From Streptomyces sp. NBC_00461 (GTDB lineage: Bacteria; Actinomycetota; Actinomycetes; Streptomycetales; Streptomycetaceae), in contig NZ_CP107902.1 of the NCBI RefSeq assembly GCF_036013935.1, positions 7,287,001 to 7,351,000 on the forward strand: a stretch of DNA of 64,000 nucleotides, given 5' to 3'. The notes beneath the pieces are model-generated. The model did no database searches. It saw only the letters and a program-made list of their open reading frames with translations, and was not told the DNA's origin. Shown here one piece after another: positions 5,984 through 24,098 of this stretch; within the stretch, counting starts at the first letter, position 1, and each line of letters begins with the position of its first letter. A program made the position numbers and the translations under genes.

Positions 5984-7312
5984 ATGCAGGCAGAACCGAA
6001 GAAGTCGCTGGTGGGGGAGGAGTACGAGGTCGAGATCGGCCCCGTCGCCCACGGCGGGCACTGCATCGCCCGTACGTCCGAGGGCCAGGTGCTGTTCGTC
6101 CGGCACGCGCTGCCCGGTGAGCGGGTCGTGGCGCGGGTGACCGAGGGCGAGGAGGGGGCCCGCTTCCTGCGCGCGGACGCGGTGTCCGTGCTCTCGGCCT
6201 CGAAGGACCGTATCGAGGCGCCCTGTCCGTATGCCGGCCCCGGCCGCTGCGGCGGCTGCGACTGGCAGCACGCCAAGCCGGGGGCGCAGCGCCGGCTGAA
6301 GGGCGAGGTCATCGCCGAGCAACTGCAGCGGCTCGCGGGTCTCACCCCCGAGGACGTCGGCTGGGACGGCACGGTGATGCCGGCCGAGGGGGACAAGCTG
6401 CCGGCAGGCGAGGTGCCGCAGTGGCGGACGCGCGTGCAGTACGCGGTGGACGCCGACGGCAACGCCGGTCTGCGCCGCCACCGTTCGCACGAGGTCGAGC
6501 CGATCGAGCACTGCATGATCGCGGCGCCGGGCGTGAGCGAGCTGGGCATCGAGGACCGCGACTGGTCGGGCATGGCGTCGGTGGAGGCGATCGCGGCGAC
6601 CGGCTCCCAGGACCGCATGGTGATCCTGGAGCCGCAGCCGGACGCCCGGCTCCCGCTGGTCGAACTCGACAAGCCGGTCTCCGTGATGCGCGTCGAGGAG
6701 AAGGACGGCGGCATCCACCGCGTTCACGGCCGCGCCTTCGTCCGCGAGCGGGCCGACGGCCGTACCCACCGGGTCGGCAGCGGCGGCTTCTGGCAGGTCC
6801 ACCCGATGGCCGCCGACACCCTCGTCAAGGCCGTCATGCAGGGCCTGCTGCCGCGCAAGGGCGACATGGCGCTCGACCTGTACTGCGGTGTGGGCCTGTT
6901 CGCCGGCGCGCTCGCCGACCGGCTCGGCGACAAGGGGGCGGTCCTCGGCATCGAGTCCGGCAAGCGCGCCGTCGAGGACGCCCGGCACAACCTCGCCGAC
7001 TTCGATCGGGTGCGGATCGAGCAGGGCAAGGTGGAGTCCGTCCTGCCGCGCACCGGCATCAACGAGGTCGACCTGATCGTCCTGGACCCGCCGAGGGCCG
7101 GCGCGGGCCGGAAGACGGTCGAGCAGCTGGCACGGCTGGGGGCGCGGAAGATCGCGTACGTGGCGTGCGATCCGGCCGCGCTGGCCCGGGACTTGGGGTA
7201 CTTCCGGGACGGGGGGTACCGGGTGCGGACGTTGCGGGCGTTCGATCTGTTTCCGATGACGTCGCACGTGGAGTGCGTGGCAATTCTTGAGCCTGCCTCA
7301 AAGGCCCTCTGA
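5984..7312 (+). CDS. TrmA/RlmC/RlmD-family RNA (uracil-5-)-methyltransferase
   Basis: A 442-residue SAM-dependent RNA m5U methyltransferase. An N-terminal TRAM domain (EEYEVEIGPVAHGGHCIAR, about residues 10-65) is followed by a cysteine cluster CPYAGPGRCGGC that fits the [4Fe-4S] site. The C-terminal Rossmann methyltransferase has the SAM motif LDLYCGVGLFAGALADRL, the DPPRAG motif and the catalytic cysteine loop VACDPAALARDLGYF. The start ATG at 5984 matches the family N-terminus. Whether it modifies tRNA U54 or a 23S rRNA uridine cannot be told. The last 62 bases recur twice downstream as repeats, so this gene end looks like an integration target. The orthologue Rv2689c is likewise next to an APC permease. 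Confidence 0.9.
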   Translation: MQAEPKKSLVGEEYEVEIGPVAHGGHCIARTSEGQVLFVRHALPGERVVARVTEGEEGARFLRADAVSVLSASKDRIEAPCPYAGPGRCGGCDWQHAKPGAQRRLKGEVIAEQLQRLAGLTPEDVGWDGTVMPAEGDKLPAGEVPQWRTRVQYAVDADGNAGLRRHRSHEVEPIEHCMIAAPGVSELGIEDRDWSGMASVEAIAATGSQDRMVILEPQPDARLPLVELDKPVSVMRVEEKDGGIHRVHGRAFVRERADGRTHRVGSGGFWQVHPMAADTLVKAVMQGLLPRKGDMALDLYCGVGLFAGALADRLGDKGAVLGIESGKRAVEDARHNLADFDRVRIEQGKVESVLPRTGINEVDLIVLDPPRAGAGRKTVEQLARLGARKIAYVACDPAALARDLGYFRDGGYRVRTLRAFDLFPMTSHVECVAILEPASKAL

Positions 7313-7353
7313 CCTGCGGGTTCTCCTTGGCGGTCGGGCGTGGTCGGTGGCAC

Positions 7354-7426
7354 TCGATCTGTTTCCCCGAAGTCCACCACGTGAGGCATGGCGCACGCTA
7401 CCGCCGCCTGTCTGACCTGCGGCTTC
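7354..7426 (+). repeat. Degenerate second copy of the methyltransferase gene end
   Basis: TCGATCTGTTTCC at 7354-7366 is identical to 7242-7254 inside the methyltransferase gene. The stretch ends in TCTGACCTGCGG at 7411, matching the stop region at 7308. It is about 9 bp shorter in between and not open. A further motif at 7482-7499 (TGACGCTCGTTCGACGCT) recurs before the two other tail copies (16547, 23938). Otherwise 7313-7665 holds nothing recognisable. Confidence 0.5.
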
Positions 7427-7665
7427 GCGTAAGGGGGGTGCAGGTTGACTCGACTTACGCGGGCCGGTTGGGGAAACGTCTTGACGCTCGTTCGACGCTG
7501 ATTCTGACGGAGCGTCATGCGGTCGTCCCGGGTCAGCCGGCGCGGCTCAATCGGAGTGTCGGGCAGCATGCTTCTAGCGATGCACACCGGGCGGGCGGCG
7601 GCTGCTCGAGCACGGCGGGATCGTGCACGCCGAGTCGGCCTGGCGGGGGCTTCATCCTGTTCGAG

Positions 7666-7836
7666 TCAGGCGTCCAGGAGGCGGAGGCGGCCCGCCAACT
7701 CCGTGCCGTCACCGCACACGACGGGCCCGCCGCCTTGGTCCCGGGCCTTGATTACGCCCTCTGGACAGAACGCGCCGCCCTCCAACTGCTCGACGAACAC
7801 CGCGCCCTGGACCGGTGTCCCCTCGATCTCCACCAC
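7666..7836 (-). CDS. Small hypothetical protein, possibly a gene remnant
   Basis: A minus-strand frame reads as a plausible protein end (VEIEGTPVQGAVFVEQLEGG, then AFCPEGVIKARDQGGGPVV, ending in LAGRLRLLDA). It stays open upstream to the stop at 7879 with ETAPQG before the GTG at 7836. A good GGAGGAG motif precedes the frame, but the codon at the right distance is ATT, not a start, so the true start may have been lost. It is unlike any family I can name. It follows the AbiEii remnant on the same strand and may be debris. Confidence 0.35.
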   Translation of the reverse strand: MVEIEGTPVQGAVFVEQLEGGAFCPEGVIKARDQGGGPVVCGDGTELAGRLRLLDA

Positions 7837-7878
7837 GCCCTGCGGCGCAGTTTCAAATGTGCTCTCCTCCGGACGCGC

Positions 7879-8180
7879 TCAGTCGATGTCCAGCTCACGG
7901 GCCTCTTCGAGGAGACGGGCCGCGAGGTCGTCGGCCCAATTTGCGGCCCAGGTGCGCAGGGCGGTGATGGTGGCGTCATCGAGTCCATAGGCGGCGAAGG
8001 CTTCATCGTCGGTCCAGTCGGCGCCCGTGAGGTTCGCCTGCAGGTCGCGCTCGAAGCGCCCACGGGCGTGGCGGCGGCCGAACTCCTCGAGCTCGGCATT
8101 GGTCCTGTGGCGGGAGGCCGCGAACACGTCGATCAGGTCGCGAGGTGCTCCGCGGCCGGCGAGGGCGCGGACTTTGGTCG
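7879..8180 (-). pseudogene. C-terminal remnant of an AbiEii/AbiGii-type nucleotidyltransferase
   Basis: The minus-strand frame from about 8180 down to the stop at 7879 encodes KVRALAGRGAPRDLIDVFAA, then RTNAELEEFGRRHARGRFE, and ends LLEEARELDID. This resembles the C-terminal helical part of Streptomyces AbiEii/AbiGii toxin-family nucleotidyltransferases. The catalytic N-terminal two thirds are gone; the frame runs into the DUF302 remnant in another phase. No AbiEi-like antitoxin gene remains. Family assignment is from memory of the C-terminal pattern and is moderate. Confidence 0.5.
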
Positions 8181-8279
8181 GGTGAGGACGCCGAAGCCCT
8201 GCTCGGCGAGGGCCTCGCGGACGCGGCTGACTGTGGTGGCGAAGTCGGTGTCGAGGTGCACGGTGCGGTCGTAGCGCAT
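8133..8279 (-). pseudogene. N-terminal remnant of a DUF302 protein
   Basis: An ATG at 8279 with a GGAAGG ribosome-binding site begins MRYDRTVHLDTDFATTVSRV, then REALAEQGFGVLT, the standard start of DUF302 proteins. After about 31 residues homology stops and the frame ends at 8133 in unrelated residues, because the sequence becomes the AbiEii remnant in a different phase. DUF302 genes often accompany rhodanese/sulfur genes, which fits the neighbours. The original gene was truncated by a deletion or insertion near 8180. Confidence 0.65.
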
Positions 8280-8381
8280 GGCAGGGGTCCTTCCGGTCGG
8301 CTCGCACGGCGCGGACCGGGTGTCCGGCCGTGTGCGAGGTGCTCGTGAGGTGTTCCCCGGGGCTTTCCCTGCCCTTGGAAA

Positions 8382-8395
8382 TACCCCCCGGGGTA
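8382..8395. promoter_or_regulatory. CsoR/CstR-type operator 1
   Basis: Perfect palindrome TACCCCCCGGGGTA in the space between the DUF302 remnant and the dioxygenase gene. It is one of six sites of this form in the sulfur island and lies 35 bp (centre to centre) from operator 2. Confidence 0.75.
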
Positions 8396-8416
8396 CTCGT
8401 GTTACGGTCGTAAGCA

Positions 8417-8430
8417 TACCCCCTGGGGTA
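8417..8430. promoter_or_regulatory. CsoR/CstR-type operator 2
   Basis: TACCCCCTGGGGTA, 25 bp before the GTG of the persulfide dioxygenase gene. A repressor here would sit on the promoter or start point of the operon. Confidence 0.8.
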
Positions 8431-8455
8431 ATTCTTCATTGGAAGGGAGTACCTC

Positions 8456-9823
8456 GTGTTCTTCGTCGACACGATCGAGGTGGCCGGGCTCGGCAACCGC
8501 AGTTACCTGGCGGGCGGCGAGCGGACGGCGGTGGCGGTCGACCCGCCCCGTGACGTGGATCAGGTGATCGCGGTGGCCGCCCGGCGCGGGGTGCGGATCT
8601 CGCACGTCGTCGAGACGCACGTCCACAACGACTACGTCACCGGCGGCCTGGAGCTGGCCCGGATCACGGGTGCGGCCTATCTCGTCCCTGCCGGGGCCAG
8701 GGTCTCCTTCGAGCGCACGCCGGTGCACGACGGCGACCACGCGGAGATCGACTCGGACGCGGGCCTGACCCTGCGCGCCGTGGCGACCCCCGGTCACACC
8801 CCGCACCACACCTCCTATGCGCTGGAGGAGAACGGCACGGCGGTCGCGGTGTTCACCGGCGGTTCGCTGCTGATCGGCACGGTGGGCCGCCCGGACCTGG
8901 TCGAGCCGCGGCTGACGGAGCAGCTGGCCCGCGCCCAGCACGCCTCCGCGCACCGCCTGGCCGCCGAGCTGCCCGACGACACGGCCGTGCTGCCCACGCA
9001 CGGATTCGGCAGCTTCTGCTCGTCCTCCCAGGCGGAGGGCAGCGACACGAGCATCGGCAAGGAGAAGGCGTCCAACGAAGCCCTCACCAGGGACGTCGAC
9101 ACTTTCGTCGCCGACCTGCTGGCCGGCCTCGACGACATCCCCGCCTACTACACGCACATGGGCCCTGCCAACGCGGCCGGACCCGCGCCCGTCGATCTGA
9201 CGCCGCCCGCCGTCGCCGACGCCGAGGAGATCGCAGCCCGGCTGGCGGCGGGGGAGTGGGTGGTGGACCTGCGCAACCGCGTCGCGTTCGCCGCCGGGCA
9301 TGTCTCCGGCTCGTTCAACTTCGAGGCTGAAGGGCAGCTCGCGACGTATCTGGCCTGGCTGATCCCGTGGGGCAAACCGGTCGCGCTGCTCGCCGAGTCA
9401 CCTGAGCAACTCGCCACCGCCCAGCGCGAACTGGTCCGCGTGGGCATCGACCGCCCCGCTGCCGCGGCCACCGGCGAACCCGGCGACTGGGTCCGGGAGG
9501 GGGAGGCCCAGGCTTCCTTCCCGCGCGCCACCTTCGCCGATCTCGCCGGCCGGCACCCGGCGGAGGGAGTCGTCGTCCTCGACGTCCGGCGCGGCTCGGA
9601 GCGGGCGGCGGGATACATCGAGGGCTCGGTCCACATCCCAGTCCACGCCCTGCACCGCCGCCTCGGCGAGGTTCCTGACGGTGAGGTATGGGTGCACTGT
9701 GCGGGCGGCATGCGGGCCGCCATCGCCGCCTCGCTGCTGGACGCCGCCGGCCGTCGTGTCGTCGCCGTCGACGACTCCTTCGACGCGGCCGAGAAGGCGG
9801 GACTCACCCTCCGGACCCTCTGA
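8456..9823 (+). CDS. MBL-fold persulfide dioxygenase with C-terminal rhodanese domains (CstB-like)
   Basis: A 455-residue cytoplasmic enzyme built like staphylococcal CstB. The N-terminal metallo-beta-lactamase domain (residues 1-240) has ETHVHNDYVTGG, TPGHTPHHTSY, FTGGSLLIGTVGRPDLV and LPTHGFGSFC. The usual last His of HxHxDH is Tyr, which I believe is common in this subgroup. A rhodanese-like domain without catalytic Cys follows (VVDLRNRVAFAAGHVSGSFN), then a complete rhodanese with loop VHCAGGMRA. Expected reaction: oxidation of low-molecular-weight persulfides to sulfite or thiosulfate. The GTG start at 8456 lies just behind operator 2. It leads a three-gene operon with the rhodanese and the TauE exporter. 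No sulfide:quinone oxidoreductase gene is seen. Confidence 0.85.
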   Translation: MFFVDTIEVAGLGNRSYLAGGERTAVAVDPPRDVDQVIAVAARRGVRISHVVETHVHNDYVTGGLELARITGAAYLVPAGARVSFERTPVHDGDHAEIDSDAGLTLRAVATPGHTPHHTSYALEENGTAVAVFTGGSLLIGTVGRPDLVEPRLTEQLARAQHASAHRLAAELPDDTAVLPTHGFGSFCSSSQAEGSDTSIGKEKASNEALTRDVDTFVADLLAGLDDIPAYYTHMGPANAAGPAPVDLTPPAVADAEEIAARLAAGEWVVDLRNRVAFAAGHVSGSFNFEAEGQLATYLAWLIPWGKPVALLAESPEQLATAQRELVRVGIDRPAAAATGEPGDWVREGEAQASFPRATFADLAGRHPAEGVVVLDVRRGSERAAGYIEGSVHIPVHALHRRLGEVPDGEVWVHCAGGMRAAIAASLLDAAGRRVVAVDDSFDAAEKAGLTLRTL

Positions 9824-9894
9824 CGGCATCGGACGCGCCGCAGACGTCCCACCGATCTTCGCCGCCGACATGGAAACAGGAGCGAGACACCGAC

Positions 9895-10284
9895 ATGAGC
9901 ATCTTCCGACGAGACCGGCGTGGTCCGGGTCGCGTGACCGTGCAGGAGGCGGCCGCGCGCACCGGCCACGGCAACGCCGTCGACAGCGGCGATGACGCCG
10001 TGCTGCTGGATGTGCGCGAGCCGTACGAGTGGCAGGCCGGGCATGCGCCGCGCGCCGTGCACCTGCCCTTGTCCGCGCTGGCCGCCGGGGCGGGGCTGCC
10101 CGCTCACGCGCAGGCGCGGCCCCTGGTCGTGATCTGCCGCTCCGGCAACCGGTCCCGGCAGGCCGCGGAACTGCTGGCCACCCGCGGCGCGCAGGCCGTG
10201 GACGTGATCGGGGGGATGCGGGACTGGGCGGGGGCGGGGCTGCCGGTGGTGGACGCACGCGGTGGGAACGGCACCGTCGCGTGA
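9895..10284 (+). CDS. Rhodanese-domain sulfurtransferase
   Basis: A 129-residue single-domain rhodanese. It has the LLDVREPYEWQAGHAP substrate-loop motif, the active loop VICRSGNRSRQAA with catalytic Cys, and the closing helix VIGGMRDWAGAGLPV. It moves sulfane sulfur between small thiols and proteins. It lies 71 nt behind the dioxygenase gene, and its stop overlaps the exporter start by 4 nt (GTGA), so translation is coupled. It plausibly supplies persulfide to the dioxygenase or takes sulfite to thiosulfate, as CstA/CstB partners do; that role is inferred from context. Confidence 0.85.
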   Translation: MSIFRRDRRGPGRVTVQEAAARTGHGNAVDSGDDAVLLDVREPYEWQAGHAPRAVHLPLSALAAGAGLPAHAQARPLVVICRSGNRSRQAAELLATRGAQAVDVIGGMRDWAGAGLPVVDARGGNGTVA

Positions 10285-11027
10285 GCGCGGTCATACTCGC
10301 CCTGGCCGCCGGCGCGGTCATCGGCCTGGCGCTCGGCGCGCTCGGGGGCGGCGGCAGTGTGCTGGCCGTTCCCGCCCTGATCTACCTGCTCGGCTTCAGC
10401 CCGGTCGCGGCGACGACCGCGAGTCTGGTCATCGTCACGCTCACCTCGGTCACCGCGCTGGTCGCGCACGCCCGCGACGGCCACGTCCGCTGGCGGACCG
10501 GGCTGCTGTTCGCGGCGGCCGGGATCGGCCCGGCGATGCTGGGCGGCGCGCTCTCCACCCGTATCCCGGCGGCCGTACTGACGGCGGCCTTCGCCGTGGT
10601 CGCGGGAGTGGCCGCCCTGCGTATGCTGCGGTCCCGGCCGGCTGCGGAGGGCGCCGTGACGGTGCGGCCGGGGCGGGTGGCGATCGCCGGCGGCGGGCTC
10701 GGCGCGGTCACCGGTGTCCTCGGTGTCGGCGGCGGTTTCCTCGCCGTACCGGCCCTGGTGAGCGTGCTGGGCCTGCGGATGCGGAACGCGGTGGGTACCA
10801 GCCTGCTGGTCATCACCGTCAACTCGCTGGCCGCGCTGGCGACGCGCGCCGGCACGGTCGAGGGGCTGGACTGGGCGGTCGTCGGGCCGTTGGTCGGGGC
10901 CGCGATCCTCGGCGCCTGGGACGGCAAGCGGGTGGCCGCGAAGATCTCGGGACACACGCTTCAGCGGATATTCGCGCTGGTGCTGCTGGCGGTGGCGGCC
11001 TTCATGCTGATCGACGCGGCGCTGTGA
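10281..11027 (+). CDS. TauE/SafE-family sulfite/sulfur-anion exporter
   Basis: A 248-residue integral membrane protein with the two-fold TauE/SafE repeat. GALGGGGSVLAVPALIYLLG appears near the N-terminus and GVLGVGGGFLAVPALVSVLG in the second half, each followed by an AVGTSL/TTASL helix. About eight hydrophobic segments are present. It begins with a GTG overlapping the rhodanese stop. In cst-type operons such proteins export sulfite or related sulfur anions formed by the dioxygenase, which fits here. It ends 21 bp before the converging csoR gene. Confidence 0.85.
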   Translation: MSAVILALAAGAVIGLALGALGGGGSVLAVPALIYLLGFSPVAATTASLVIVTLTSVTALVAHARDGHVRWRTGLLFAAAGIGPAMLGGALSTRIPAAVLTAAFAVVAGVAALRMLRSRPAAEGAVTVRPGRVAIAGGGLGAVTGVLGVGGGFLAVPALVSVLGLRMRNAVGTSLLVITVNSLAALATRAGTVEGLDWAVVGPLVGAAILGAWDGKRVAAKISGHTLQRIFALVLLAVAAFMLIDAAL

Positions 11028-11048
11028 CGGCCGCCGTGGCGAGAGTCC

Positions 11049-11345
<297 letters not shown>

Positions 11346-11355
11346 TCAAAGAAAA

Positions 11356-11369
11356 TACCCCTAGGGGTA
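11356..11369. promoter_or_regulatory. CsoR/CstR-type operator 3
   Basis: Perfect palindrome TACCCCTAGGGGTA in the divergent region between the repressor gene and the rhodanese-DUF2892 gene, so one site can control both. Confidence 0.85.
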
Positions 11370-11419
11370 CTGTACGTCCCGGTTCGGGACGGCGTCGACC
11401 ATTAAGGATCACATCTGTC

Positions 11420-12007
11420 ATGGCCAACACCTCCGCCCCCGTCACCCTCGCCACCGAGCAGGCCCGCACCAGGCTGCACGAACTCACCGTCATCGACGTG
11501 CGCACGCCCGCCGAGTACGCCTCCGGCCACCTGCCCGGCGCCCTGAACATTCCGCTCGACCACGTCCGCCGCGCCCTGCCGGAGATACGGCACGCCGCCG
11601 GACGCGGTGACGTCCTGGTGGTGTGCGCCTCCGGAGCCCGTTCCGAGAACGCCTGCAAGCTGCTGGCAGAGCAGGGCATCACCACGGCCACGCTTGCAGG
11701 TGGCACCGGCGCCTGGGCCGCCGAGGGGCACGACCTGCACACACCGGCCGCCTGCGACACGCGGGCCGGCTGGAGCATGGAACGCCAGGTCCGCTTCACC
11801 GCCGGCAGCCTGGTCCTGCTCGGCCTCCTGTTCGGCCTGCTCGTGCACCCGGCCCTCCTGCTGCTCTCGGCCGGCGTCGCGGGCGGCCTGGTGTTCTCCG
11901 CCCTTACGAACACCTGCGGCATGGCGGTCGTGCTCGGCAAGCTGCCGCACAACCGCCCGCGCGCGGCCGATCTCGACGCCACGCTGGCCGCTCTGCGCAG
12001 CCGCTGA
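11420..12007 (+). CDS. Rhodanese with C-terminal DUF2892 membrane anchor (YgaP-like)
   Basis: A 195-residue protein. The N-terminal rhodanese domain (residues 5-115) has VIDVRTPAEYASGHLPGALN and active loop VVCASGARS. A DUF2892 module with two hydrophobic helices (FTAGSLVLLGLLFGLLV and LLLLSAGVAGGLVFSAL) follows and contains the conserved NTCGMA. E. coli YgaP has the same layout and is a membrane-bound sulfurtransferase. The gene is divergent from cstR, with operator 3 between them, and stands alone up to the terminator at 12016. Confidence 0.85.
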   Translation: MANTSAPVTLATEQARTRLHELTVIDVRTPAEYASGHLPGALNIPLDHVRRALPEIRHAAGRGDVLVVCASGARSENACKLLAEQGITTATLAGGTGAWAAEGHDLHTPAACDTRAGWSMERQVRFTAGSLVLLGLLFGLLVHPALLLLSAGVAGGLVFSALTNTCGMAVVLGKLPHNRPRAADLDATLAALRSR

Positions 12008-12015
12008 ACCCGTGT

Positions 12016-12052
12016 TCCGGGGCGCCCGTGGAGACTTCATGGGCACCCCGGA
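12016..12052. terminator. Bidirectional terminator hairpin
   Basis: A 15-nt arm (12016-12030) pairs with 12038-12052 with two imperfect pairs over a 7-nt loop. It lies between the convergent rhodanese-DUF2892 and thioredoxin genes. Confidence 0.65.
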
Positions 12053-12054
12053 CG

Positions 12055-12426
12055 TCAGTTCGCTCCCGTCGAGCCCGCGGCGGCCTTCCGGCGCACGTCC
12101 TCCATGTCGACGGCCCGGATCCTGCCGATGAGCTCTTCCAGGGCCTGCGGCGGCAGCGCGCCCGGTTGTGAGTGCAGGACGGTCCGGTCTCGGACGGCCA
12201 TGAGTGTGGGGATGGAGGAGATCTGGAAGGCGCCCGCCAGTTCGGGCTGTGCCTCGGTGTCGACCTTGCCGAAGACGATGTCCGGGTGGCGCGCGGCCGC
12301 CTTCTCGTAGACGGGGCCGAACATCCGGCACGGTCCGCACCAGGCCGCCCAGAAGTCGATCAGCGCGATCTCCGAACCGGTGACGGTTTCCTCGAAGTTG
12401 TCCTTGGTCAGTTCCACGGTGGGCAT
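12055..12426 (-). CDS. trxA: Thioredoxin
   Basis: A 123-residue thioredoxin with the active site FWAAWCGPCRMFGP, the cis-Pro motif SSIPTLMAV and an extended charged C-terminal tail (RKAAAGSTGAN). It reduces protein disulfides and can release sulfane sulfur as H2S from persulfides. The ATG at 12426 follows GGAGAG with good spacing. Operator 4 lies 22 bp upstream of the start, which places this thioredoxin in the sulfur regulon; its role is probably reducing persulfidated rhodanese or repressor. It is a single gene. Confidence 0.85.
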   Translation of the reverse strand: MPTVELTKDNFEETVTGSEIALIDFWAAWCGPCRMFGPVYEKAAARHPDIVFGKVDTEAQPELAGAFQISSIPTLMAVRDRTVLHSQPGALPPQALEELIGRIRAVDMEDVRRKAAAGSTGAN

Positions 12427-12447
12427 GGCTACCGCTCTCCTCTCTTA

Positions 12448-12461
12448 TACCCGGCGGGGTA
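12448..12461. promoter_or_regulatory. CsoR/CstR-type operator 4
   Basis: TACCCGGCGGGGTA (wider: ATACCC-GGCG-GGGTAT) directly upstream of the thioredoxin gene. It is a slightly imperfect version of the six-site set. Confidence 0.7.
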
Positions 12462-12475
12462 TTCGGGTACACGGT

Positions 12476-13010
12476 TCAACCGGTGCCGGTCCGAGTTTGT
12501 TCCAGGCGGACGGGCGGCAGCGGGAACCAACGCATGCGCTCGAAGTCGGCCGGCAGCCCGGTGGGGCCGTTGTCGAGACGGCCGGAACAAGCGGTGAACA
12601 CCTCGCGGGCGCGGTTGAGTTGACCTGCCGGTGCCTCCGCCCAGCCGACGGTGACGGGGTGCCGGGGCGCTGATCCGACCGTCCGCCGAGTACCGCACGT
12701 CGGTCAGGCGCAGCGGGGGATCGGTGGCGCCGGCATGGTGGCGCCACTGCCCGGTGTGCGGGTCGAAGCGGAAGTCGGGCAGGAGTCGGTGGCCGTGCGT
12801 GGCGATCAGGTCGACGGCGGCGATGAGGTAGTCGCGGACGGTATCGCTGATGAAGTAGTTGAAGTTGATGCGGGTCCAGCCGGGTTTGATGCCGTCGCAG
12901 CCGTGGACGACCTCGTCGAGCAAGGCGTGGGAGGTGGCCGTTTCGATGGCGAGCAGGCGGTGGCTGTCGGGGCCTGCGCAGGAGCAGCCGGAGGGCGTCA
13001 CCGGACACCG
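12476..13010 (-). pseudogene. Remnant of a class V PLP aminotransferase (cysteine-desulfurase superfamily)
   Basis: The minus strand from about 13010 encodes GCSCAGPDSHRLLAIETAT, then GIKPGWTRINFNYFISDTVR and LPDFRFDPHTGQWRHHA, the C-terminal domain of class V aminotransferases of the selenocysteine-lyase/cysteine-desulfurase group. After SADGRI the frame shifts, and the family C-terminus reappears as LPADFERMRWFPLPPVR, ending at the stop at 12476. The PLP-binding N-terminal two thirds are missing. It is dead by truncation and at least one frameshift. Its original job may have been sulfur mobilisation next to the rhodaneses. Confidence 0.7.
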
Positions 13011-13553: not shown

Positions 13554-13560
13554 AAGACAT

Positions 13561-16768: not shown

Positions 16769-16840
16769 TGGCCCGGCACAGCAACAAGCCCTCTACCTGC
16801 GGGAAACCGCAGGTAGAGGGCTTGTTGCTGTGCCGGGCCA
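16769..16840. other. Perfect 34-bp inverted repeat with GAAA loop
   Basis: Arms 16769-16802 and 16807-16840 are exactly complementary over 34 bp around a GAAA tetraloop. This is far longer than a normal terminator. It lies just behind the gene-tail repeat and has no downstream T-run. It may be a strong terminator, an element end, or a folded RNA; the sequence does not decide. Confidence 0.85.
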
Positions 16841-17207
16841 CGGGGAGTGGGATCTGAATTGATCAACCTGATGGAACGGGTTTCTGATCAACTTCACCGT
16901 CCCACAAGATCAGTTCTGTGTGAACCGACGAGGCGGAAACGAGCGGGGGCATGTCCCGTTCTCGGTCGACCGGACCGCCAATCCGCCCGGAGGATCTCGC
17001 CTCTGTCCCCTTGGGGGACGAGAACGAAAAGTCACTGAACAGACATGGAAAAGGTGCACCAACGATGAAGCTCACGCTGCGCCGGAACGGGCGCAAGCTC
17101 GGGCCAGGCGGGGCTGCGTCGTGAACTGCACAGCGACGACAACCAGAACGCCGCCCCGACCACACGGTTCTCCTCCCAGGTCCGGCTGCCCGTCACGCAG
17201 GCGGCTG
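16841..17207. other. Non-coding or decayed spacer
   Basis: No convincing gene on either strand. A start-like ATG at 17065 opens only a 19-residue frame (MKLTLRRNGRKLGPGGAAS). A short inverted repeat flanks CCCCTTGGGG near 17015. The segment separates the hairpin from the end of rbsD. Confidence 0.4.
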
Positions 17208-17603
17208 TCACGGGGTGAAGGGGACCCCCGCGCGGAGGAGCACGTTGGCGTAGAAGGTGTCCTCGCCCGTCCGTACGGCGAACTTGACGTCCCGGACCCT
17301 GGCCTTGAACTCGTCGTGGTCGATGGGTTCGGGGTCGAGCCCGAAGGAGCGCAGGCCGGTGTGGACGGTGGGGTTGACCTCGCGGATCTTGTCGGTCACC
17401 CAGCTGTGCTCGACGACGATCTCGTTGAGCACGGTCTGGACGACGTCCAGGAACGGGGATTGGCCGTACCGGTAGCCGAGATCCACGACGGGGGTGTCGG
17501 GTGCCAGGGGGAGCCCGGCGTCGCTGATCACGAAGGTGTCGGTGTGGCGGAGACCGGCGATCAGCCCGGCCAGCTCGCGGTGGATGATGCCCTTGCGCTG
17601 CAC
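17208..17603 (-). CDS. rbsD: D-ribose pyranase
   Basis: A 131-residue RbsD/FucU-family mutarotase that interconverts beta-pyranose and furanose forms of D-ribose so that ribokinase can use it. Family features are the N-terminal GIIHRELAGLIAGLRHTD with the catalytic His, ISDAGLPLAPDTPVVDLGYR, and the C-terminal VRTGEDTFYANVLLRAGVPF. It starts with GTG 4 nt behind rbsK and is the last gene of the ribose operon. Confidence 0.93.
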   Translation of the reverse strand: MQRKGIIHRELAGLIAGLRHTDTFVISDAGLPLAPDTPVVDLGYRYGQSPFLDVVQTVLNEIVVEHSWVTDKIREVNPTVHTGLRSFGLDPEPIDHDEFKARVRDVKFAVRTGEDTFYANVLLRAGVPFTP

Positions 17604-17607
17604 GGGT

Positions 17608-18579
17608 TCAGTCCTTTTCGGTAGGGGGAGTGGTGGGGGCGAGGGCGCGCAGCGTGGCCAGGCCGGCGTACTGCTGGGGCGCACCCGAGACCCGTACGGC
17701 CAGGGAGCCCGCGGCGATGCCGAGGCGTGCGGCGTCCAGGAGCGAGTCACCGGCGGCGAGCCGGGCGGCGAGCACTCCGGCGAAGGCGTCACCGGCGCCC
17801 GTGGTGTCCACGACGGTCGCGGGGACGGCCGGGAGCGCCGTGGAGACGCCGTCGGCGTCGGTGACGATGGCGCCCGCCTCGCCCAGGGTGGTGACCACGG
17901 CCTTGGCACCCCGGGCGTGCAGCGCGTCGTGCGCCTTCCGTACGGACGCTTCGTCCGGCGTGACCTCAGCATCTTTGTCCGTCGCCAACTGGCCTGACAC
18001 CACCGCCTGTTCGTGCTCGTTCACGATGAGCACGTCACAGCGGGCGATCAGGTCGTCGGGGAGTTCGGCGGCGGGGGCGGCGTTGAGGAGGAACCGTCCC
18101 CGGCAGGCGTCCGCCGCGCGGCGGACGACGTCCAGCGGGATCTCCAACTGGGCCAGTACGACGGCTGCTTGAGCCCCGAGGCCCTCGGTGGGGTCGCCCT
18201 CGGAGGGCCACTGGTGGTTGGCGCCGGCGACCACCACGATGGTGTTGTCGCCGGCCGCCGTGGTGATCCACGCGGTACCGGTCTCGGCGCCGGGCACCGT
18301 GGTCACCGCCTCGACGTCCACTCCGCCGGCGACCAGCCGGGCACGGGCCCGGTCCGCCTCGGCGTCCTCGCCCACCCGGGCGATCATCGCCGTACGAACG
18401 CCTCCGGAGGCCGCCGCGGCCGCCTGGTTGGCGCCCTTGCCACCGAGGGTGACGTACGCGGTACGGCCGAGGAGGGTCTCGCCGGGGGAGGGGAAGGCGT
18501 CGGCGACGACGACGTGGTCGATGTTCACCGAGCCGATCACCACGACCTGGGGTGACGTACCCGGCACGGCCTCAGGCAT
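17608..18579 (-). CDS. rbsK: Ribokinase
   Basis: A 323-residue PfkB-family kinase that phosphorylates D-ribose at O5. It has the N-terminal GSVNIDHVVVADAFPSPGET, the first PfkB signature GGKGANQAAAAA and the second signature VVDTTGAGDAFAGVLAARLA with the catalytic Asp. Length is normal. It overlaps the ATPase gene by 8 nt and precedes rbsD, a translationally coupled order. Confidence 0.93.
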   Translation of the reverse strand: MPEAVPGTSPQVVVIGSVNIDHVVVADAFPSPGETLLGRTAYVTLGGKGANQAAAAASGGVRTAMIARVGEDAEADRARARLVAGGVDVEAVTTVPGAETGTAWITTAAGDNTIVVVAGANHQWPSEGDPTEGLGAQAAVVLAQLEIPLDVVRRAADACRGRFLLNAAPAAELPDDLIARCDVLIVNEHEQAVVSGQLATDKDAEVTPDEASVRKAHDALHARGAKAVVTTLGEAGAIVTDADGVSTALPAVPATVVDTTGAGDAFAGVLAARLAAGDSLLDAARLGIAAGSLAVRVSGAPQQYAGLATLRALAPTTPPTEKD

Positions 18580-19411
18580 GCGCGTCCCCTTGCACGGCCC
18601 CGGTGATCAGCCCGACCAGCTCGTCACCCGTGGTGGCGGAGACGGTCCGCCGCGCGGCGGACCGGCCTCGGCGCAGTACGTACGCGGTGTCGGCGACCCG
18701 GAGCACCTGCGCCATGTCGTGGCTGATCAGCAGCACGGTCACCGACGCCTCGCGGAGCCGGGCGATGAGCTCCTCCACGGCCGCCGTCTCCCGGACGCCC
18801 AGCGCTGCGGTCGGCTCGTCCATGATGACCAGGGTGCGGCCCCAGTTGGCCGCGCGGGCGATGGCGATGCACTGCCGCTGACCGCCCGACATCCGCCGCA
18901 CGGTGGCCCGTACGTTCGGCACGTTCACGTCCAGCCGGGACAGGATGTCGCTGCTCTGGGCGATCATGGACTTCTTGTCCAGCACCCGGAACGGGCCGAA
19001 GCCGCTGGTCAGCTCGTGGTTGAGGTAGAGGTTCTGCCAGACCGGGAGGTCCTCGATGAGGCCGAGGGTCTGGTACACCGTCTCGATGCCCAACTGCCGG
19101 GCGTCGTCGGGGGAGTGGAACCGGACCTGCTCGCCCCGGAAGCGGATCTCGCCCGCGTCCTGCGGGTGCACACCGGTCAGACAGCGCACCAGCGTGGACT
19201 TGCCCGCGCCGTTGTCGCCGAGGAGCGCGGTGACCTCGCCGGGGGCCAGCTTCAGGTCCACGCCCTGGAGCGCCTGGACCGCGCCGAAGGACTTGCGCAG
19301 CCCGGTGATCTCCACGAGCGGCGAGACGACCTGACTGGCCGAGGCGGCGCTCTGGGTGGCGGCCGGGGCGGCGGAGGATGTGCCCGTCACACGGGCCGGA
19401 GTGTCCGTCAT
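18572..19411 (-). CDS. Sugar ABC transporter ATPase, single-domain (ribose type)
   Basis: A 279-residue ABC ATPase with Walker A GDNGAGKST, signature MSGGQRQCIAIARA, Walker B TLVIMDEPTAALG and switch His ISHD. E. coli RbsA has two such domains in tandem; here there is only one, as in FrcA-type importers, so two copies must pair. The Ala/Ser/Thr-rich N-terminus (first about 30 residues) is likely flexible. It lies between permease and ribokinase genes in the ribose operon. Confidence 0.88.
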   Translation of the reverse strand: MTDTPARVTGTSSAAPAATQSAASASQVVSPLVEITGLRKSFGAVQALQGVDLKLAPGEVTALLGDNGAGKSTLVRCLTGVHPQDAGEIRFRGEQVRFHSPDDARQLGIETVYQTLGLIEDLPVWQNLYLNHELTSGFGPFRVLDKKSMIAQSSDILSRLDVNVPNVRATVRRMSGGQRQCIAIARAANWGRTLVIMDEPTAALGVRETAAVEELIARLREASVTVLLISHDMAQVLRVADTAYVLRRGRSAARRTVSATTGDELVGLITGAVQGDAHA

Positions 19412-19423
19412 GGCTGGCTTCTC

Positions 19424-20383
19424 CTACTTCTGGAACCGGGAGATGAAGGCCGCGCCGAGTACGACGGTGCCGACCGCGATGGGCTGGTAGTACTGCGAGA
19501 TGCCGAGCAGGGTGAACCCGTTGATGAGGCTCTGGAGCAGCAACGCGCCGGTCACCGTGCCGAACACGGAGGCCTTCCCGCCGAACAGGCTGGACCCGCC
19601 GAGGACCACCGCCGCGATGGAGCTGAGCAGCAGGTCGGTCTGGAGGCTGGGGTCGGCGCCGCCCGTGCGGGCCACGAACAGCACGGCCGCGACCCCGCAG
19701 GCCAGCCCGGAACTCGCGTACGCGATCAGCCGGATACGGTTGACGTGGATGCCCACACCCCGCGCGGCCTCGATGTTGCCGCCGGTCGACAGCAGATAGG
19801 TGCCGGTACGGGTGCGGTAGAGAAGGAAGCCCACCAGCACGGCCACCACGAAGGCCAGTACCCAGAACCAGCGCACCGGGCCGATGCCGTTGATCGCCAG
19901 AGCGCGCAGGAAGTCCGAGTTCACGGGGACGGTGTTGCCGCTGGTCAGCAGCAGGGTGAGACCGCTGACCACGGAGAGCGAGCCGAGGGTGACGATGAAG
20001 TCGGTCATGTTCAGCCGGGCCACCAGCAGACCGTTGACCACGCCCACCGCCAGCCCGGCCAGCAGGGCCAGGCCGACGGAGACGGTCAGTCCCCAGCCAC
20101 TGGTGTAGGCGTACCCGAGGACCGCCGCCGACCAGGGCAGGTTGGAGCCCACCGAGAGGTCGATACCGGCGACGGTGACCACCAGCTGCTGGCCCATGGC
20201 GAGGACCAGCAGGATCGAGGCCGACACCAGCAGGTCGCTGATGTTGGACGTCGTGAGGAAGTCGGGCGTGGCGATGAAGAAGATGAGGAACACCACGCCC
20301 AGCCCGATCGGGGCGGCGTAGCGTGCCGCCGCCTCGACCGAGAAGTCCAGGCCGAGCCGGCCCGGCGCCTGAGTGTCAGCCAT
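19424..20383 (-). CDS. rbsC: Sugar ABC transporter permease (RbsC-like)
   Basis: A 319-residue BPD_transp_2-family permease. About ten hydrophobic segments start at YAAPIGLGVVFLIFFIATPD. The conserved GIDLSVGSNLPWSAAVLGYA loop and VNGLLVARLNMTDFIVTLGS are typical of ribose/galactose permeases, with GGSSLFGGKASVFGTVTGAL near the end. It forms the membrane channel with the single-domain ATPase downstream (12-nt gap). Confidence 0.9.
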   Translation of the reverse strand: MADTQAPGRLGLDFSVEAAARYAAPIGLGVVFLIFFIATPDFLTTSNISDLLVSASILLVLAMGQQLVVTVAGIDLSVGSNLPWSAAVLGYAYTSGWGLTVSVGLALLAGLAVGVVNGLLVARLNMTDFIVTLGSLSVVSGLTLLLTSGNTVPVNSDFLRALAINGIGPVRWFWVLAFVVAVLVGFLLYRTRTGTYLLSTGGNIEAARGVGIHVNRIRLIAYASSGLACGVAAVLFVARTGGADPSLQTDLLLSSIAAVVLGGSSLFGGKASVFGTVTGALLLQSLINGFTLLGISQYYQPIAVGTVVLGAAFISRFQK

Positions 20384-20390
20384 GATCAGA

Positions 20391-21464
20391 TCACTTCCCG
20401 GCCGAGAGCGGGTTTTCGAACGGGACGAACGGCTGCGGGACGGAGCTGATCGCCTTGTCCACGTTGGTGGAGTCGATCAGGGCGATCGGGGCGACGATCC
20501 GGCTGGGCACCTTCTTCTTGGCGACCAGGTCGATGCAGGCCTGCACGGCCAACTGGCCCTCGGCGTACGGGTACTGGGAGATCGTGCCGCTGAGGGTGCC
20601 CGCCTTGACCGCCTCCAGCGCGGCGCTGATGCCGTCCACCGAGATGATGGAGACCTTGCCGGTCAGGCCGGCGTTGCGGACCGCCTGCGCGGCGCCCAGA
20701 CCCATGGTGTCGTTGGCGGCGAAGATACCGGTGATCTTCGGGTGGGCCTTGAGGATGGCCTCGGTGACCGTCTGCCCCTTGGCCTGGTCGTAGTCGGCGG
20801 GCTGGGTGGCGACGATGTCCAGCTTGCCCGCGACCTTCTCCGTGAAGCCCTTCTGGCGGTTGATGCCGTTCTGCTCACCGGCGATGCCCTGGAGGATGGC
20901 CACCTCGCCCTTGCCGCCCATGAGCTTCAGCAGGCCCTCGCCCGCCTGCTGACCCGCCGACAGGTTGTCCGAGCCGATGAACGAGGCGTACGACACCCCG
21001 GCCTGCTTCGAGGCGTTCGCGTCGATCTGGGTGTCCAGGTTGAGGATCGGGATCTTCTTCTGGGCGACCGGGACGAGCGGGGTGATCACGTTGGTGGCGT
21101 TGACCGGTACGACGCCGAAGCAGTTGTAGCCCTGGCCCGCGAGGGTGGAGATCTTGGCGTTCTCACCCGTGCTGTCGGTCTCCGACGCGCCCGCCTGGAC
21201 CTCCACCTTGACGCCCTGCTTCTTGCCCTCGGCTATCGCGCCGTCGCGCAGCGCCGCCCAGTAGGGGTTGGTGAAGTTCCGGGTGACGATGGCGATCTTC
21301 GCCTCGCCCGACTTGCTGCCGCTGTCGGAGCTGTCCCCGCCCCGGCCGCAACCGGCCACCACCAGCAGCATCGTCGCGGCGGCGGCGACAGCGGTGGCGG
21401 AACGGACTCTGCGTGCGGTGCGGTTGGCGGTGGCGCCGGAGTCGGCGGTGACGTTGGTGTTCAT
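20391..21464 (-). CDS. rbsB: Sugar-binding lipoprotein of the ribose ABC transporter
   Basis: A 357-residue periplasmic-binding protein of the type I sugar family. A signal peptide ends in the lipobox VVAGC (Cys about 39), so it is membrane-anchored. The mature protein starts with the disordered linker GRGGDSSDSGSKSG and has KIAIVTRNFTNPYWAALRDG, the hinge region GIFAANDTMGLGAAQAV and ISVDGISAALEAVKAG. It leads the transport operon 7 nt before the permease gene. Ribose specificity is inferred from rbsK/rbsD. Confidence 0.88.
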   Translation of the reverse strand: MNTNVTADSGATANRTARRVRSATAVAAAATMLLVVAGCGRGGDSSDSGSKSGEAKIAIVTRNFTNPYWAALRDGAIAEGKKQGVKVEVQAGASETDSTGENAKISTLAGQGYNCFGVVPVNATNVITPLVPVAQKKIPILNLDTQIDANASKQAGVSYASFIGSDNLSAGQQAGEGLLKLMGGKGEVAILQGIAGEQNGINRQKGFTEKVAGKLDIVATQPADYDQAKGQTVTEAILKAHPKITGIFAANDTMGLGAAQAVRNAGLTGKVSIISVDGISAALEAVKAGTLSGTISQYPYAEGQLAVQACIDLVAKKKVPSRIVAPIALIDSTNVDKAISSVPQPFVPFENPLSAGK

Positions 21465-21806
21465 GGGAGTGCCTTTCGTCGCGTCATTGCGTCAAAACGG
21501 GGTGGCGTGGGGTCCGCGCGGGGCGCGGGGCGCGCGGGGTGGCCCGGACTCCGAGGCCGGGGGAGGCTGAGTCGGAGACCGGGAGTCTGGGAGTCCGTAA
21601 GTCCGGGACCGGGGGCCGAGTTTGAGGTCGGGGCCAGGTGAGCCGGGGCGCACGGTGAGGCCGTAGTCCGTCGTACGGATCAGGTGAGTCGTACGAGTCG
21701 TACGGGATGTACGCGGCGTACGGTCGGGCATTTCGGTGCGAGCCGGGAGCCGTGACCGGTCACCCGCTCTGCCCGCTCGCCCGCCGTCGCTATAAGCGCG
21801 CGCCGA
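21465..21806. promoter_or_regulatory. Spacer between lacI and rbsB with phased GTACG repeats
   Basis: The 342-bp gap has a G-rich half and an array of five GTACG motifs starting at 21673, 21691, 21700, 21709 and 21718, spaced 18, 9, 9 and 9 bp. No gene is visible. The array is 209-258 bp upstream of rbsB and may be a regulator-binding region or a simple repeat. Confidence 0.5.
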
Positions 21807-22832
21807 TCATCGAGTCGCCCCGGCGAGGTCCGGGCAGCCGCAGGAGCCGCGGGCGATCAGGGTGGTGGGGTGGGTGATGCGCCGTACCGGGAGGGTGGGG
21901 TCGGCGATCTTGGCCAGGAGCCACTCGACGGCCGAGCGGCCCAGCTCGTCGAAGGGCTGCTGCATGGTGGTGAGCGCGGGCACCGTGTACTCGCTGCCGT
22001 CGATACCGTCGAAGGCGCAGACCGCCACGTCGTCGGGGACGCGCAGTCCCAGTTCGGCGGCGGCGCGCAGGACGCCGATGGCCTGCTCGTCACTCGCCAC
22101 GAAGAGCGCGTCCGGATGCCCCGCCTCCGCGAGCATCCGCCGGCCGGCCCGGTACCCGTCGGCCCGTCCGAACGGCACATGCGTCAGCGACGCGCTCTCC
22201 GGATCCCGCCCGGCCTCGACGAGGGCCCGGCGCCAGCCCGCGACCCGGTCGACCGTCGGATGCACGCCCTCCAGCCCGGCAATGCACCCGATCCGCTGCC
22301 GGCCGTGAGCGAGTAGATGGGAGGTGGCCTGGTACGCGCCGCCCTCGTTGTCGGTGAGCACCTGCGTCGCCCCCGGCAGCTCCAGCTCGCGGTCGAGCAC
22401 CAGCCGGGGCACGGTCGTCTGCTCGGACAGCTCCGCGACCCAACTGTGCGGGCCGTGGATCGGGACCACGATGAGCCCGTCCACCTGCCGGTCGAGCAGG
22501 GTCCGGATGTACGTCGCCTCGCGGGCGTCGTCACCCATCGCGTTGCCCAGCAGCATCGTGTAGCCGGAGGCGAAGCCGACATCCTCGATGACGCGGGCCA
22601 GCTCGGCGAAGAAGGGGTTGGAGTTGTCGGGCACGACCAGCCCGAAGGTCATGGTCCGCGAGGTCTTCAGGGACCGGGCCACCACGTTGGGGCGGTAGCC
22701 GAGCTCGTCTATCGCCGCGAGGATCCGTTCGCGGGTGGCGGGGGCGACCTTGCGGGGGCCGTTGTTGAGGACGTAGCTGACCAGGGCCTCGGAGGTGCCC
22801 GCCAGGCGCGCCACGTCGCGGCGAGTTGCCAT
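21807..22832 (-). CDS. LacI-family transcriptional regulator of the ribose operon
   Basis: A 341-residue repressor with the N-terminal LacI helix-turn-helix TRRDVARLAGTSEALVSYVL followed by the hinge ILAAIDELGYRPNVVARSLK. A periplasmic-binding-like ligand domain follows (TFGLVVPDNSNPFFAELARV; LFVASDEQAIGVLRAAAELG; VCAFDGIDGSEYTVPALTTM). The second position of the recognition helix is Glu (SEALVS) where many LacI proteins have Thr/Pro. Four cysteines sit at the C-terminus (RGSCGCPDLAG). The ATG at 22832 follows GGAGGG. It lies upstream of rbsB on the same strand and probably senses ribose or its phosphate. Confidence 0.9.
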   Translation of the reverse strand: MATRRDVARLAGTSEALVSYVLNNGPRKVAPATRERILAAIDELGYRPNVVARSLKTSRTMTFGLVVPDNSNPFFAELARVIEDVGFASGYTMLLGNAMGDDAREATYIRTLLDRQVDGLIVVPIHGPHSWVAELSEQTTVPRLVLDRELELPGATQVLTDNEGGAYQATSHLLAHGRQRIGCIAGLEGVHPTVDRVAGWRRALVEAGRDPESASLTHVPFGRADGYRAGRRMLAEAGHPDALFVASDEQAIGVLRAAAELGLRVPDDVAVCAFDGIDGSEYTVPALTTMQQPFDELGRSAVEWLLAKIADPTLPVRRITHPTTLIARGSCGCPDLAGATR

Positions 22833-22871
22833 CAGACCCTCCTTCGGCTCGGGGGCTGCGTTCTGGAAGTA

Positions 22872-22898
22872 TCAACTCGTGTTGTCAACACGAGTTGA
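22872..22898. promoter_or_regulatory. 27-bp palindromic operator upstream of lacI
   Basis: A perfect 13-bp inverted repeat (TCAACTCGTGTTG and its complement) surrounds a single T, 40 bp before the LacI start. It is a likely autoregulatory LacI operator. The centre TTGTCAA could also belong to a -35 box. Confidence 0.7.
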
Positions 22899-23015
22899 TT
22901 CGGTTGCGTTGGATGAATATCGACTGCTGATCCGCCGATGCGCAAGAGGTTGCCCGAAATCCTTTGGTAAAGAGTTCGAAACCTTGCTTTGCAGGTGAAA
23001 CTCGGGCGGGACCTT

Positions 23016-23055
23016 GATCACCACCTCGGTGATCACCTGATCACCACCCTGATCA
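23016..23055. repeat. Cluster of GATCACC / GGTGATC motifs
   Basis: GATCACC occurs at 23016, 23031 and 23039 with one GGTGATC at 23028 and a further GATC at 23051. These form overlapping inverted repeats. It lies between the lacI promoter and a decayed gene and may be a regulator site of a lost gene. Confidence 0.4.
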
Positions 23056-23065
23056 TCGCGGCGGG

Positions 23066-23455
23066 ATGAATCCGCCGCCCTCCTGCGTTGGTGTTCGCCG
23101 AGGGCACCCCGGCCTGGACGCACGCTCTATCACCGCGACGAAACAGCCGAGGCCAGTGTTGCGTCGCCTGGCAGACGTCCGCGCGGACCGAGCCGAAGCC
23201 AGTGCCTTCGTCGAGGCGACCGGTGTGCACGTGGCCCCGCTGCTTGCCGCTGGATACTGGGCCCTCGATGATGAGTTCAAGGGCGACCCGTTCGATCTGG
23301 AGGGCGCGGTGACCGCTGTGGCGCTCAAGATCGAGGACGAGGGCGAGGCGCGGTGGATCGTCAACTGCCTAGACGTTCTTCAGGTATTCGACCGTGAAGA
23401 CGTCCAACTGCGCCTGGAACCGCTGTTGCGCCAGTGCGTGACGCTCCGCGTGTGA
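23066..23455 (+). CDS. Hypothetical protein, N-terminus doubtful
   Basis: From about 23160 the plus strand encodes a natural-looking acidic protein: RLADVRADRAEASAFVEATG, APLLAAGYWALDDEFKGDPF, VALKIEDEGEARWIVNCLDV and FDREDVQLRLEPLLRQC, ending at 23455. The first 30 residues of the open frame are low-complexity and no convincing start or ribosome-binding site is seen, so the gene may be 5'-truncated. I do not recognise a functional family. It lies in the debris between the ribose operon and the last tail repeat. Confidence 0.45.
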   Translation: MNPPPSCVGVRRGHPGLDARSITATKQPRPVLRRLADVRADRAEASAFVEATGVHVAPLLAAGYWALDDEFKGDPFDLEGAVTAVALKIEDEGEARWIVNCLDVLQVFDREDVQLRLEPLLRQCVTLRV

Positions 23456-23458
23456 GCG

Positions 23459-23830
23459 TGTGACACCCGGTCCGGCCGCCGGCATGTCCGGGCGGCCGGA
23501 CACCTTGCCGGTAGCCGACCAGACACGGTTGGTCCATCTCCGGGAGGCTCCTTGAGGACGTCGACTTCGCATACCCGCCCGGTGGCCGGGTCGGTCACGG
23601 TGAAGCGGGCCGACAGCGGGGCGGTCTCCAGCGCGTGCACCTTGGTGGTTTCACGACCCCTTGGGTCGGGCCGTGCAGCTGGTCCAGCGATTCCGGCAGA
23701 CGGCGCCGGAACTTCTCCGGTACAGCGCGAGGTCCTCGGCGACCACGCCCGACAGGTCGCTCGGCGTGGGGGCGGGGTGCTGTGGGCTGGAGGGAATGGC
23801 CCCATTCTGGCGGCCGGAGCAGTGGCGCGG
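23459..23830 (-). pseudogene. Frameshifted remnants of one or two small accessory proteins
   Basis: Minus-strand reading gives DLSGVVAEDLALYR, then in another frame KFRRRLPESLDQLHGPTQGV, then in a third VHALETAPLSARFTVTDPAT plus GRVCEVDVLKEPPGDG. The pieces are colinear and separated by frame changes, the pattern of a decayed gene or a fusion of two. The LDxLxGPTxGxV motif reminds me of small Streptomyces accessory proteins, but I cannot name a function. Confidence 0.45.
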
Positions 23831-23937
23831 GTCATGATGTCCGAGCCTGCGTCCGGAGTGAGCGATAGCGAGCTCGTGCGGGCGAGCTGGTCGGGCCGGC
23901 CTGTTCCGCCCGAAGACGAGGGATGGACTGTTGGTCA

Positions 23938-24098
23938 TGACGCTCGTTTGGCGCTCTGGTCGCCCGGGCGCGGCACCGTGAGCCGATAAATCGGCTCTGA
24001 CCTGGTCTTTTCCGTGACTCGCCCAGGCCGACATCCTTCCGATGACGCATCGCGTGGAGTGCGTGGCGATCCTTGAGCCGGTGGCCAAGGGCTCCTGA
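23938..24098 (+). repeat. Third copy of the RNA methyltransferase gene end (att-like repeat)
   Basis: Positions 24037-24098 match the last 62 bases of the methyltransferase gene without gaps (about 77% by eye). They encode FPMTHRVECVAILEPVAKGS and a stop. The block from TGACGCTCGTTTGGCGCT at 23938 is closely related to 16547-16707. It would mark the right end of the accessory zone. Confidence 0.65.

What the first reader, a model, noticed from the sequence alone, without database searches (positions are those of the whole stretch)
7251..24098. Gene-tail repeats suggest an island built by serial integration at the RNA methyltransferase 3' end
Seen: the terminal 62 bases of the gene (7251-7312) recur without indels at 16646-16707 and 24037-24098, both keeping the reading frame and stop. 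A degenerate copy lies at 7354-7426, and TGACGCTCGTTYG-type motifs at 7482, 16547 and 23938. The two distal copies are about 97% alike and only about 77% like the gene. Inference: att scars from at least two elements that regenerate the gene end; integrases have been lost.
Basis: partly seen in the sequence, partly recalled or inferred. Interest (0 to 1): 0.7.

Follow-up and report, generated by a model that had tools for sequence, protein, structure and literature searches.

The report
Serial gene-island insertions at rumA's end
Two stretches of borrowed genes, apparently for sulfur and for ribose use, sit one behind the other at the end of an RNA-methylating gene, and the repeats around them look like scars of mobile islands whose matching insertion enzyme lies beside the same scars in related bacteria.

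Summary
The last 62 bases of a RumA/RlmD-like gene (7251-7312) recur at 16646 and 24037, and nowhere else found in this genome. Both distal copies are right ends (attR) of one island family: arm repeats TGACGCTCGTTTGACGCTC lie 99 bases before each. Such right ends occur in at least 63 of 150 genus genomes (hand count). A tyrosine integrase lies 0.2-11 kb inside such an end in 34 of 46 integrase loci. The island delivers the gene end: 10 of 32 variable tail columns follow the left-arm type, against 0 of 98 upstream. So the window holds two tandem, integrase-less elements, E1 (sulfur) and E2 (ribose), each with a relic of the family's AbiEii-like gene, and a trace of a third. The 'degenerate copy' at 7354 is a conserved part of one left-arm type. 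No empty site was found, and 12 of 46 integrase loci showed no attR. The logic is known (tandem accretion, cis-mobilizable elements); the papers searched do not describe this site or integrase.

The parts
5702..7312 (+). RumA/RlmD-like 23S rRNA uracil methyltransferase gene, the target gene (start codon uncertain)
   Evidence: TIGR00479 201.8 bits, cut-off 183.55; TRAM and tRNA_U5-meth_tr domains
7251..7312 (+). gene-end half of attL: core plus 3' coding tail, by inference supplied by the last element
   Evidence: repeat D3; tail-arm association starts at 7262
7313..7515 (+). type-B left arm (P') of E1, with the 'degenerate tail' 7354-7426 and TGACGCTC-like repeats from 7482; right limit approximate
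7313..16645 (.). element E1: rhodanese-domain proteins (8456-9823, 11420-12007, 14732-15154, 15247-16866; the last ORF as listed overlaps attR, so its true start is probably lower), TauE (10029-11027), thioredoxin (12055-12426)
   Evidence: Pfam; boundaries from att sites
7882..8178 (-). relic of the family's AbiEii-like nucleotidyltransferase (C-terminal 100 residues)
   Evidence: 82-87% identity; PF08843 in a relative
16542..16708 (+). attR of E1: P arm 16547-16565 and tail copy 16646-16707
   Evidence: nhmmer E 1e-46; genome-wide model E 4.1e-38; both models include this site
16708..16728 (+). remnant of a type-A left arm (start of E2)
   Evidence: 4 mismatches in 21 bases, only place in the window (+ strand) with 5 or fewer
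16708..24036 (.). element E2: PfkB kinase (17608-18579), ABC ATPase, permease, sugar-binding protein, LacI regulator (to 22832)
   Evidence: Pfam
23548..23797 (-). fragments of AbiEii-like gene and its partner, in different frames, just inside the P arm as in some intact elements
   Evidence: 64-73% identity
23933..24100 (+). attR of E2: P arm 23938-23956 (one mismatch) and tail copy 24037-24098
   Evidence: nhmmer E 1.9e-44; E 6.4e-38; both models include this site
24108..24146 (+). remnant of a type-A left arm: trace of a third, older element or site
   Evidence: 7 mismatches in 39 bases, only place in the window (+ strand) with 7 or fewer

Best explanation
The region is a tandem array of two decayed, integrase-less islands of a family that inserts by a lambda-type tyrosine integrase into the 3' end of a rumA-like gene (genus taken to be Streptomyces: named matches; the genomes searched are unnamed). 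The circular element would carry attP = P arm (TGACGCTC repeats), core plus a copy of the last ~60 bases of rumA, then P' arm. Exchange occurs near the start of the repeat, most simply between 7252 and 7262, so the incoming element completes the gene with its own tail and pushes the old tail to its far end. Elements carrying type-A tails came first; the type-B element E1 came last, next to the gene. Integrase and helper genes were then lost; cargo and att sites remain. Shown from sequence: att architecture, integrase linkage, tail exchange, relics. Inferred: direction and order of events, and that this integrase acts on these sites. Not tested: excision and transfer.
For: (1) 48 distinct attR sequences, collected by requiring arm and tail 92-106 bases apart; attR reaching the P arm in at least 63 of 150 genus genomes, own genome counted (hand count of the cut list). 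(2) Of 61 gene ends, 24 have left arm A, 20 arm B (window included), 17 neither. (3) Integrase at 70% identity or more in 19 of 150 genomes; attR downstream on the same strand, 0.2-11 kb away, in 34 of 46 loci. (4) Second arm repeat reads GACGCA[CT] in 7 of 7 loci with attR whose integrase is 69-73% identical to the query, and in 0 of 25 with integrases of 86% or more (Fisher p 3e-7; bands chosen after seeing the data, relatedness ignored; two loci at 63% and 75% do not have it). (5) Tail columns associated with arm type: 10 of 32 variable in the repeat, 0 of 98 variable in the 178 columns upstream; tail identity effect 0 of 2000 permutations, upstream control 1165 of 2000. (6) Window gene tail nearer type-B tails (0.806 v 0.754), both distal tails nearer type-A (0.825 v 0.777); type-A arm remnants follow both distal tails. 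(7) Integrase more alike than the host gene in 32 of 45 pairs of ten genomes, rank correlation -0.32: horizontal spread. (8) AbiEii relics in both window elements.
Against: No empty site shown: flanks after attR match other species only in part, and the window's right flank from about 26.2 kb lies far from this gene in the genomes with the longest matches. 12 of 46 integrase loci had no attR in the DNA fetched; of these G076 has a P arm at its contig edge and G324 only 606 bases of room; in G109 the nearest listed attR is 43 kb away. L079 has sulfur-gene relatives beside the gene without detected repeats. Some attR sites lie hundreds of kb from the gene or on plasmids without it. With G015 the integrase is more alike in 32 of 55 pairs only. 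Permutation tests ignore phylogeny except through the upstream control.
Confidence: 0.9

Rival explanations
1. Homologous recombination or segmental duplication of the gene end, without site-specific insertion.
For: The repeated tail is coding sequence, and tandem copies could arise by duplication (inference).
Against: Tails in the window resemble different arm types; the profile of attR matches the gene only from model position 97, so the P arm is absent there; the same architecture recurs in at least 63 of 150 genomes; linked integrase.
Confidence: 0.04
2. A dispersed repeat family (intergenic regulatory or IS-derived) that happens to contain the gene end.
For: Copies occur far from the gene and on linear plasmids.
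Against: Own genome has three places only, all here; 41 of 48 copies keep frame to the same stop; integrase linkage.
Confidence: 0.03
3. One composite element entered as a block carrying both att copies, rather than two successive insertions.
For: The two distal tails differ at only 2 of 62 bases; composite transfer of CIME-ICE tandems is reported (passage of PMC5704250).
Against: E1 brings a type-B arm and tail whereas both distal tails resemble type A, which fits separate arrivals.
Confidence: 0.2

Closest known systems
Dehalococcoides ssrA-specific genomic islands (PMC3146451, passages read)
   Same: tandem islands between copies of a gene's 3' end, conserved integration module in some (16 of 31) and not in others (15), metabolic cargo, considered by the authors as possible cis-mobilizable elements
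   Different: target is ssrA with a 20-bp repeat; other integration genes (DsiB); other phylum
Cis-mobilizable elements and tandem accretion (PMC5704250, passages read)
   Same: att sites kept, integration genes lost, arrays formed by later arrivals
   Different: no mobilization has been tested here
Streptomyces AICE accretion, including a 23S methyltransferase site rlmN (PMC9513070, passages read)
   Same: genus (as inferred), repeated insertion at one site, decay of elements
   Different: no TraB or relaxase domain among the 40 cargo proteins scanned here; target is rumA-like, not rlmN or tRNA
IMEs in rumA of streptococci (PMC5704250, passages read)
   Same: related target gene
   Different: serine integrase and internal site there; tyrosine integrase and 3' end here

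Membership tests
Tyrosine-integrase genomic island at a gene 3' end | direct repeat of the gene end at both borders | tested here: met
Tyrosine-integrase genomic island at a gene 3' end | cognate integrase linked to the att site | tested here: met
   met for the family, 34 of 46 loci; for the window's elements themselves not met: none in the window nor in this genome at 1e-40, read as decay
Tyrosine-integrase genomic island at a gene 3' end | empty site in a relative | tested here: inconclusive
Cis-mobilizable element (CIME) | attL and attR kept, integration and transfer genes absent | tested here: met
   att sites; no match to the family integrase in the window; no integrase or transfer domain among 17 ORFs of E1 and E2 scanned
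Cis-mobilizable element (CIME) | moves with help of an intact element | not testable with these tools
   needs bench work
AICE | TraB translocase and replication genes | tested here: inconclusive
   none among 40 of 75 ORFs (100 residues or more) of five integrase-bearing elements (ORFs listed; scans)
Integron cassette array | one integrase gene fixed beside the primary site | tested here: not met
   integrase lies inside elements towards attR; attC-like hairpins were not tested

The most novel reading that the evidence does not exclude
A family-wide cassette economy in streptomycetes: most elements at the rumA end are integrase-free cargo units (metabolism, defence, phosphonate- or NRPS-type clusters, toxin-antitoxin pairs) that are captured, reordered and moved, also on linear plasmids, by a minority of integrase-bearing relatives, while the 3' end of a conserved rRNA-modification gene is continually replaced by incoming DNA.
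Probability: 0.35. Interest if true: 0.72.

Novelty: new member of a known kind. Interest (0 to 1): 0.5.

Why it matters
It names an insertion hot spot and its integrase family in what are probably antibiotic-producing bacteria, explains how unrelated cargo (sulfur, ribose, a Lamassu-like defence set, a cluster with PEP-mutase, AMP-binding and condensation domains) comes to lie behind one conserved gene, and gives a sequence signature (attR model) by which such islands can be found even when the integrase is gone. The exchange of a gene's last codons by mobile DNA is visible column by column.

Tried and rejected
Empty site: post-attR flanks of 28 elements compared with the DNA behind the gene in 60 loci gave shared segments but no clean joint; the flank of G013 was sought in 6 genomes and the window's right flank in 150, without a conserved neighbour beside the gene. 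Conserved neighbour genes: the commonest family is in 7 of 61 loci. The exact arm motif gave no viral contig and the attR no phage record at E 0.01; the integrase had no plasmid match at 1e-40 and in phages only relatives below 60% identity (453 records). Idea that 7354-7426 is a decayed scar: rejected. A general integrase profile from 27 sequences gave 8 hits in the 60 loci plus the window, some of them antisense to others; it led to the real family. Paper searches on this site found none that describes it; I saw listings, and passages of five papers. Most listed papers were not opened.

Full report
WHAT IS THERE. The gene at 5702-7312 is RumA/RlmD-like (TIGR00479 above cut-off). Its last 62 bases recur at 16646 and 24037 with frame and stop kept. 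A genome search found these three places; a longer query counted four matches, not all listed. The two distal copies share more than the tail: 195 bases at 84%, including the arm TGACGCTCGTTTGACGCTC (one mismatch in the second) 99 bases before the tail.

COMPARATIVE SET. All 150 genus genomes sampled have a match to the gene. I fetched 60 loci with about 18.5 kb behind it (60 of 150, chosen by similarity and room on the contig). A profile built from 48 distinct attR sequences found a full distal attR in 15 of these 60 stretches; longer arrays exist, for instance five distal tails in G136, one of them without a recognised arm. A genome-wide model (18 sites, two of them the window's) found attR with its P arm in at least 63 of 150 genomes, own genome counted (the list was cut, I counted handles by hand; only counted that typed list). 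In a family-level sample 21 of 121 genomes matched at 1e-14, in 6 of 17 genera; some of these matches are tails only, but five genera other than the window's have a match that reaches into the P arm.

TWO LEFT ARMS. Behind the gene stop lies arm type A (24 of 61 loci), type B (20, including the window) or neither (17). Many arms of both types go on to TGACGCTC-like repeats; in some the repeats are poor.

THE INTEGRASE. A tyrosine integrase of about 362-372 residues was found first in L070, L045 and, truncated, in L042. It is in 19 of 150 genomes at 70% identity or more (22 at the 1e-40 limit, three of them at 30-34%) and in 45 of 392 at 1e-100 with a second query. The window's genome has none at these limits. 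Of 46 loci examined, 34 have attR downstream on the same strand (only that strand and side were counted). Integrases 69-73% identical to the query are mostly 198-390 bases from attR (6 of 7 loci with attR), and their second arm repeat reads GACGCA[CT] in 7 of 7, against 0 of 25 for integrases of 86% or more; the bands were set after seeing the data and relatedness is ignored. Two further loci, with integrases at 63% and 75%, have TGACGCTC and a changed repeat.

ELEMENT ANATOMY. In the 19 integrase loci compared by tblastn (10, 9) an HTH_17 gene stands before the integrase in 17. An Int-like helper (weak PF00589) was matched in 9 of 19, and a 480-residue protein without Pfam or NCBIfam match in 10 of 19, in one of these as a fragment; both are frequent in the first ten and rare in the other nine. 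An AbiEii-like gene or part of it stands between integrase and attR in six (G007, G104, G108, G122, G021, G024). Some elements have a Fic/DOC gene with a small putative antitoxin gene behind the tail. Cargo differs: LmuB, LmuC and LmuA/HamA-like proteins in G031; AMP-binding, condensation, PEP-mutase and carbamoyltransferase domains in the 35-kb element of G104; an NB-ARC protein in G105. No transfer gene was seen among the 40 of 75 ORFs scanned in five elements.

THE GENE END IS EXCHANGED. Among 44 typed loci, sharing an arm type raises identity of the last 50 bases beyond what the gene body predicts (0 of 2000 permutations), while the 50 bases just upstream of the repeat show no effect (1165 of 2000). 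By column, 10 of 32 variable tail columns are associated with arm type at p 0.01 or less and none of 98 variable upstream columns; the first is window 7262. The variable column at 7252 is not associated, so the exchange most simply lies between 7252 and 7262.

READING THE WINDOW. Gene with type-B tail and arm; E1 with sulfur cargo; attR with A-like tail; type-A arm remnant (16708-16728); E2 with ribose cargo; attR with A-like tail; second type-A arm remnant (24108-24146). AbiEii relics at 7882-8178 and 23548-23797 tie both elements to the family. The simplest history is type-A insertions first, E1 last, integrase lost (inference).

LIMITS. No empty site was found; the region behind the gene differs greatly between species. 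Integrase was more alike than the host gene in 32 of 45 pairs of ten genomes (32 of 55 with G015), with a negative rank correlation (-0.32), which fits horizontal spread (11 genomes for which both genes had been fetched whole or nearly so). L079 (and at +15 kb L055) carry relatives of the sulfur genes; L079 has an AbiEii relic but no detected repeat within the stretch fetched. Recombination itself is untested.

NOVELTY. The logic equals that of ssrA islands in Dehalococcoides and of tandem accretion in general (passages). The target, att structure and integrase family appear undescribed in the papers searched, which cover open-licence papers only.

Noticed in passing
NZ_CP108566.1 227839-263004; NZ_CP120984.1 (L155): Tandem attR sites (four, the last one partial, and two) on linear Streptomyces plasmids whose records gave no match to the rumA-like protein at 1e-60.
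   Followed up: partly
L129 around 1500-1750 (G124:C1:7208382); L131: P arm - tail junctions about 0.6 Mb from the gene, with alike upstream sequence in two genomes; in L129 a type-A arm follows, in L131 the tail is changed.
   Followed up: no
window 26220-32500: Conserved block that in G104, G013, G124 and G141 lies 1.6-6.8 Mb from the rumA-like gene, so the window's right flank may mark a rearrangement.
   Followed up: partly
window 16769-16840: Perfect 34-base inverted repeat with a 4-base loop just behind the first distal tail, terminator-like.
   Followed up: no
L070:10271-11719: 480-residue protein conserved beside the integrase in 8 of the 9 integrase-bearing elements, but only as a fragment in 1 of 9 further loci; no Pfam or NCBIfam match.
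   Followed up: partly
L070:13355-13984: Second, short tyrosine-recombinase-like protein upstream of the HTH gene and integrase; possible recombination helper.
   Followed up: no
L038 and L179 (G104 element): A 35-kb element with PEP-mutase, two AMP-binding, condensation, carbamoyltransferase and LuxR-type genes: looks like a natural-product cluster carried as island cargo.
   Followed up: partly
L062 / L187 (G022:C68): Smallest element seen, about 1.5 kb: left arm, AbiEii-like gene and partner, P arm.
   Followed up: no
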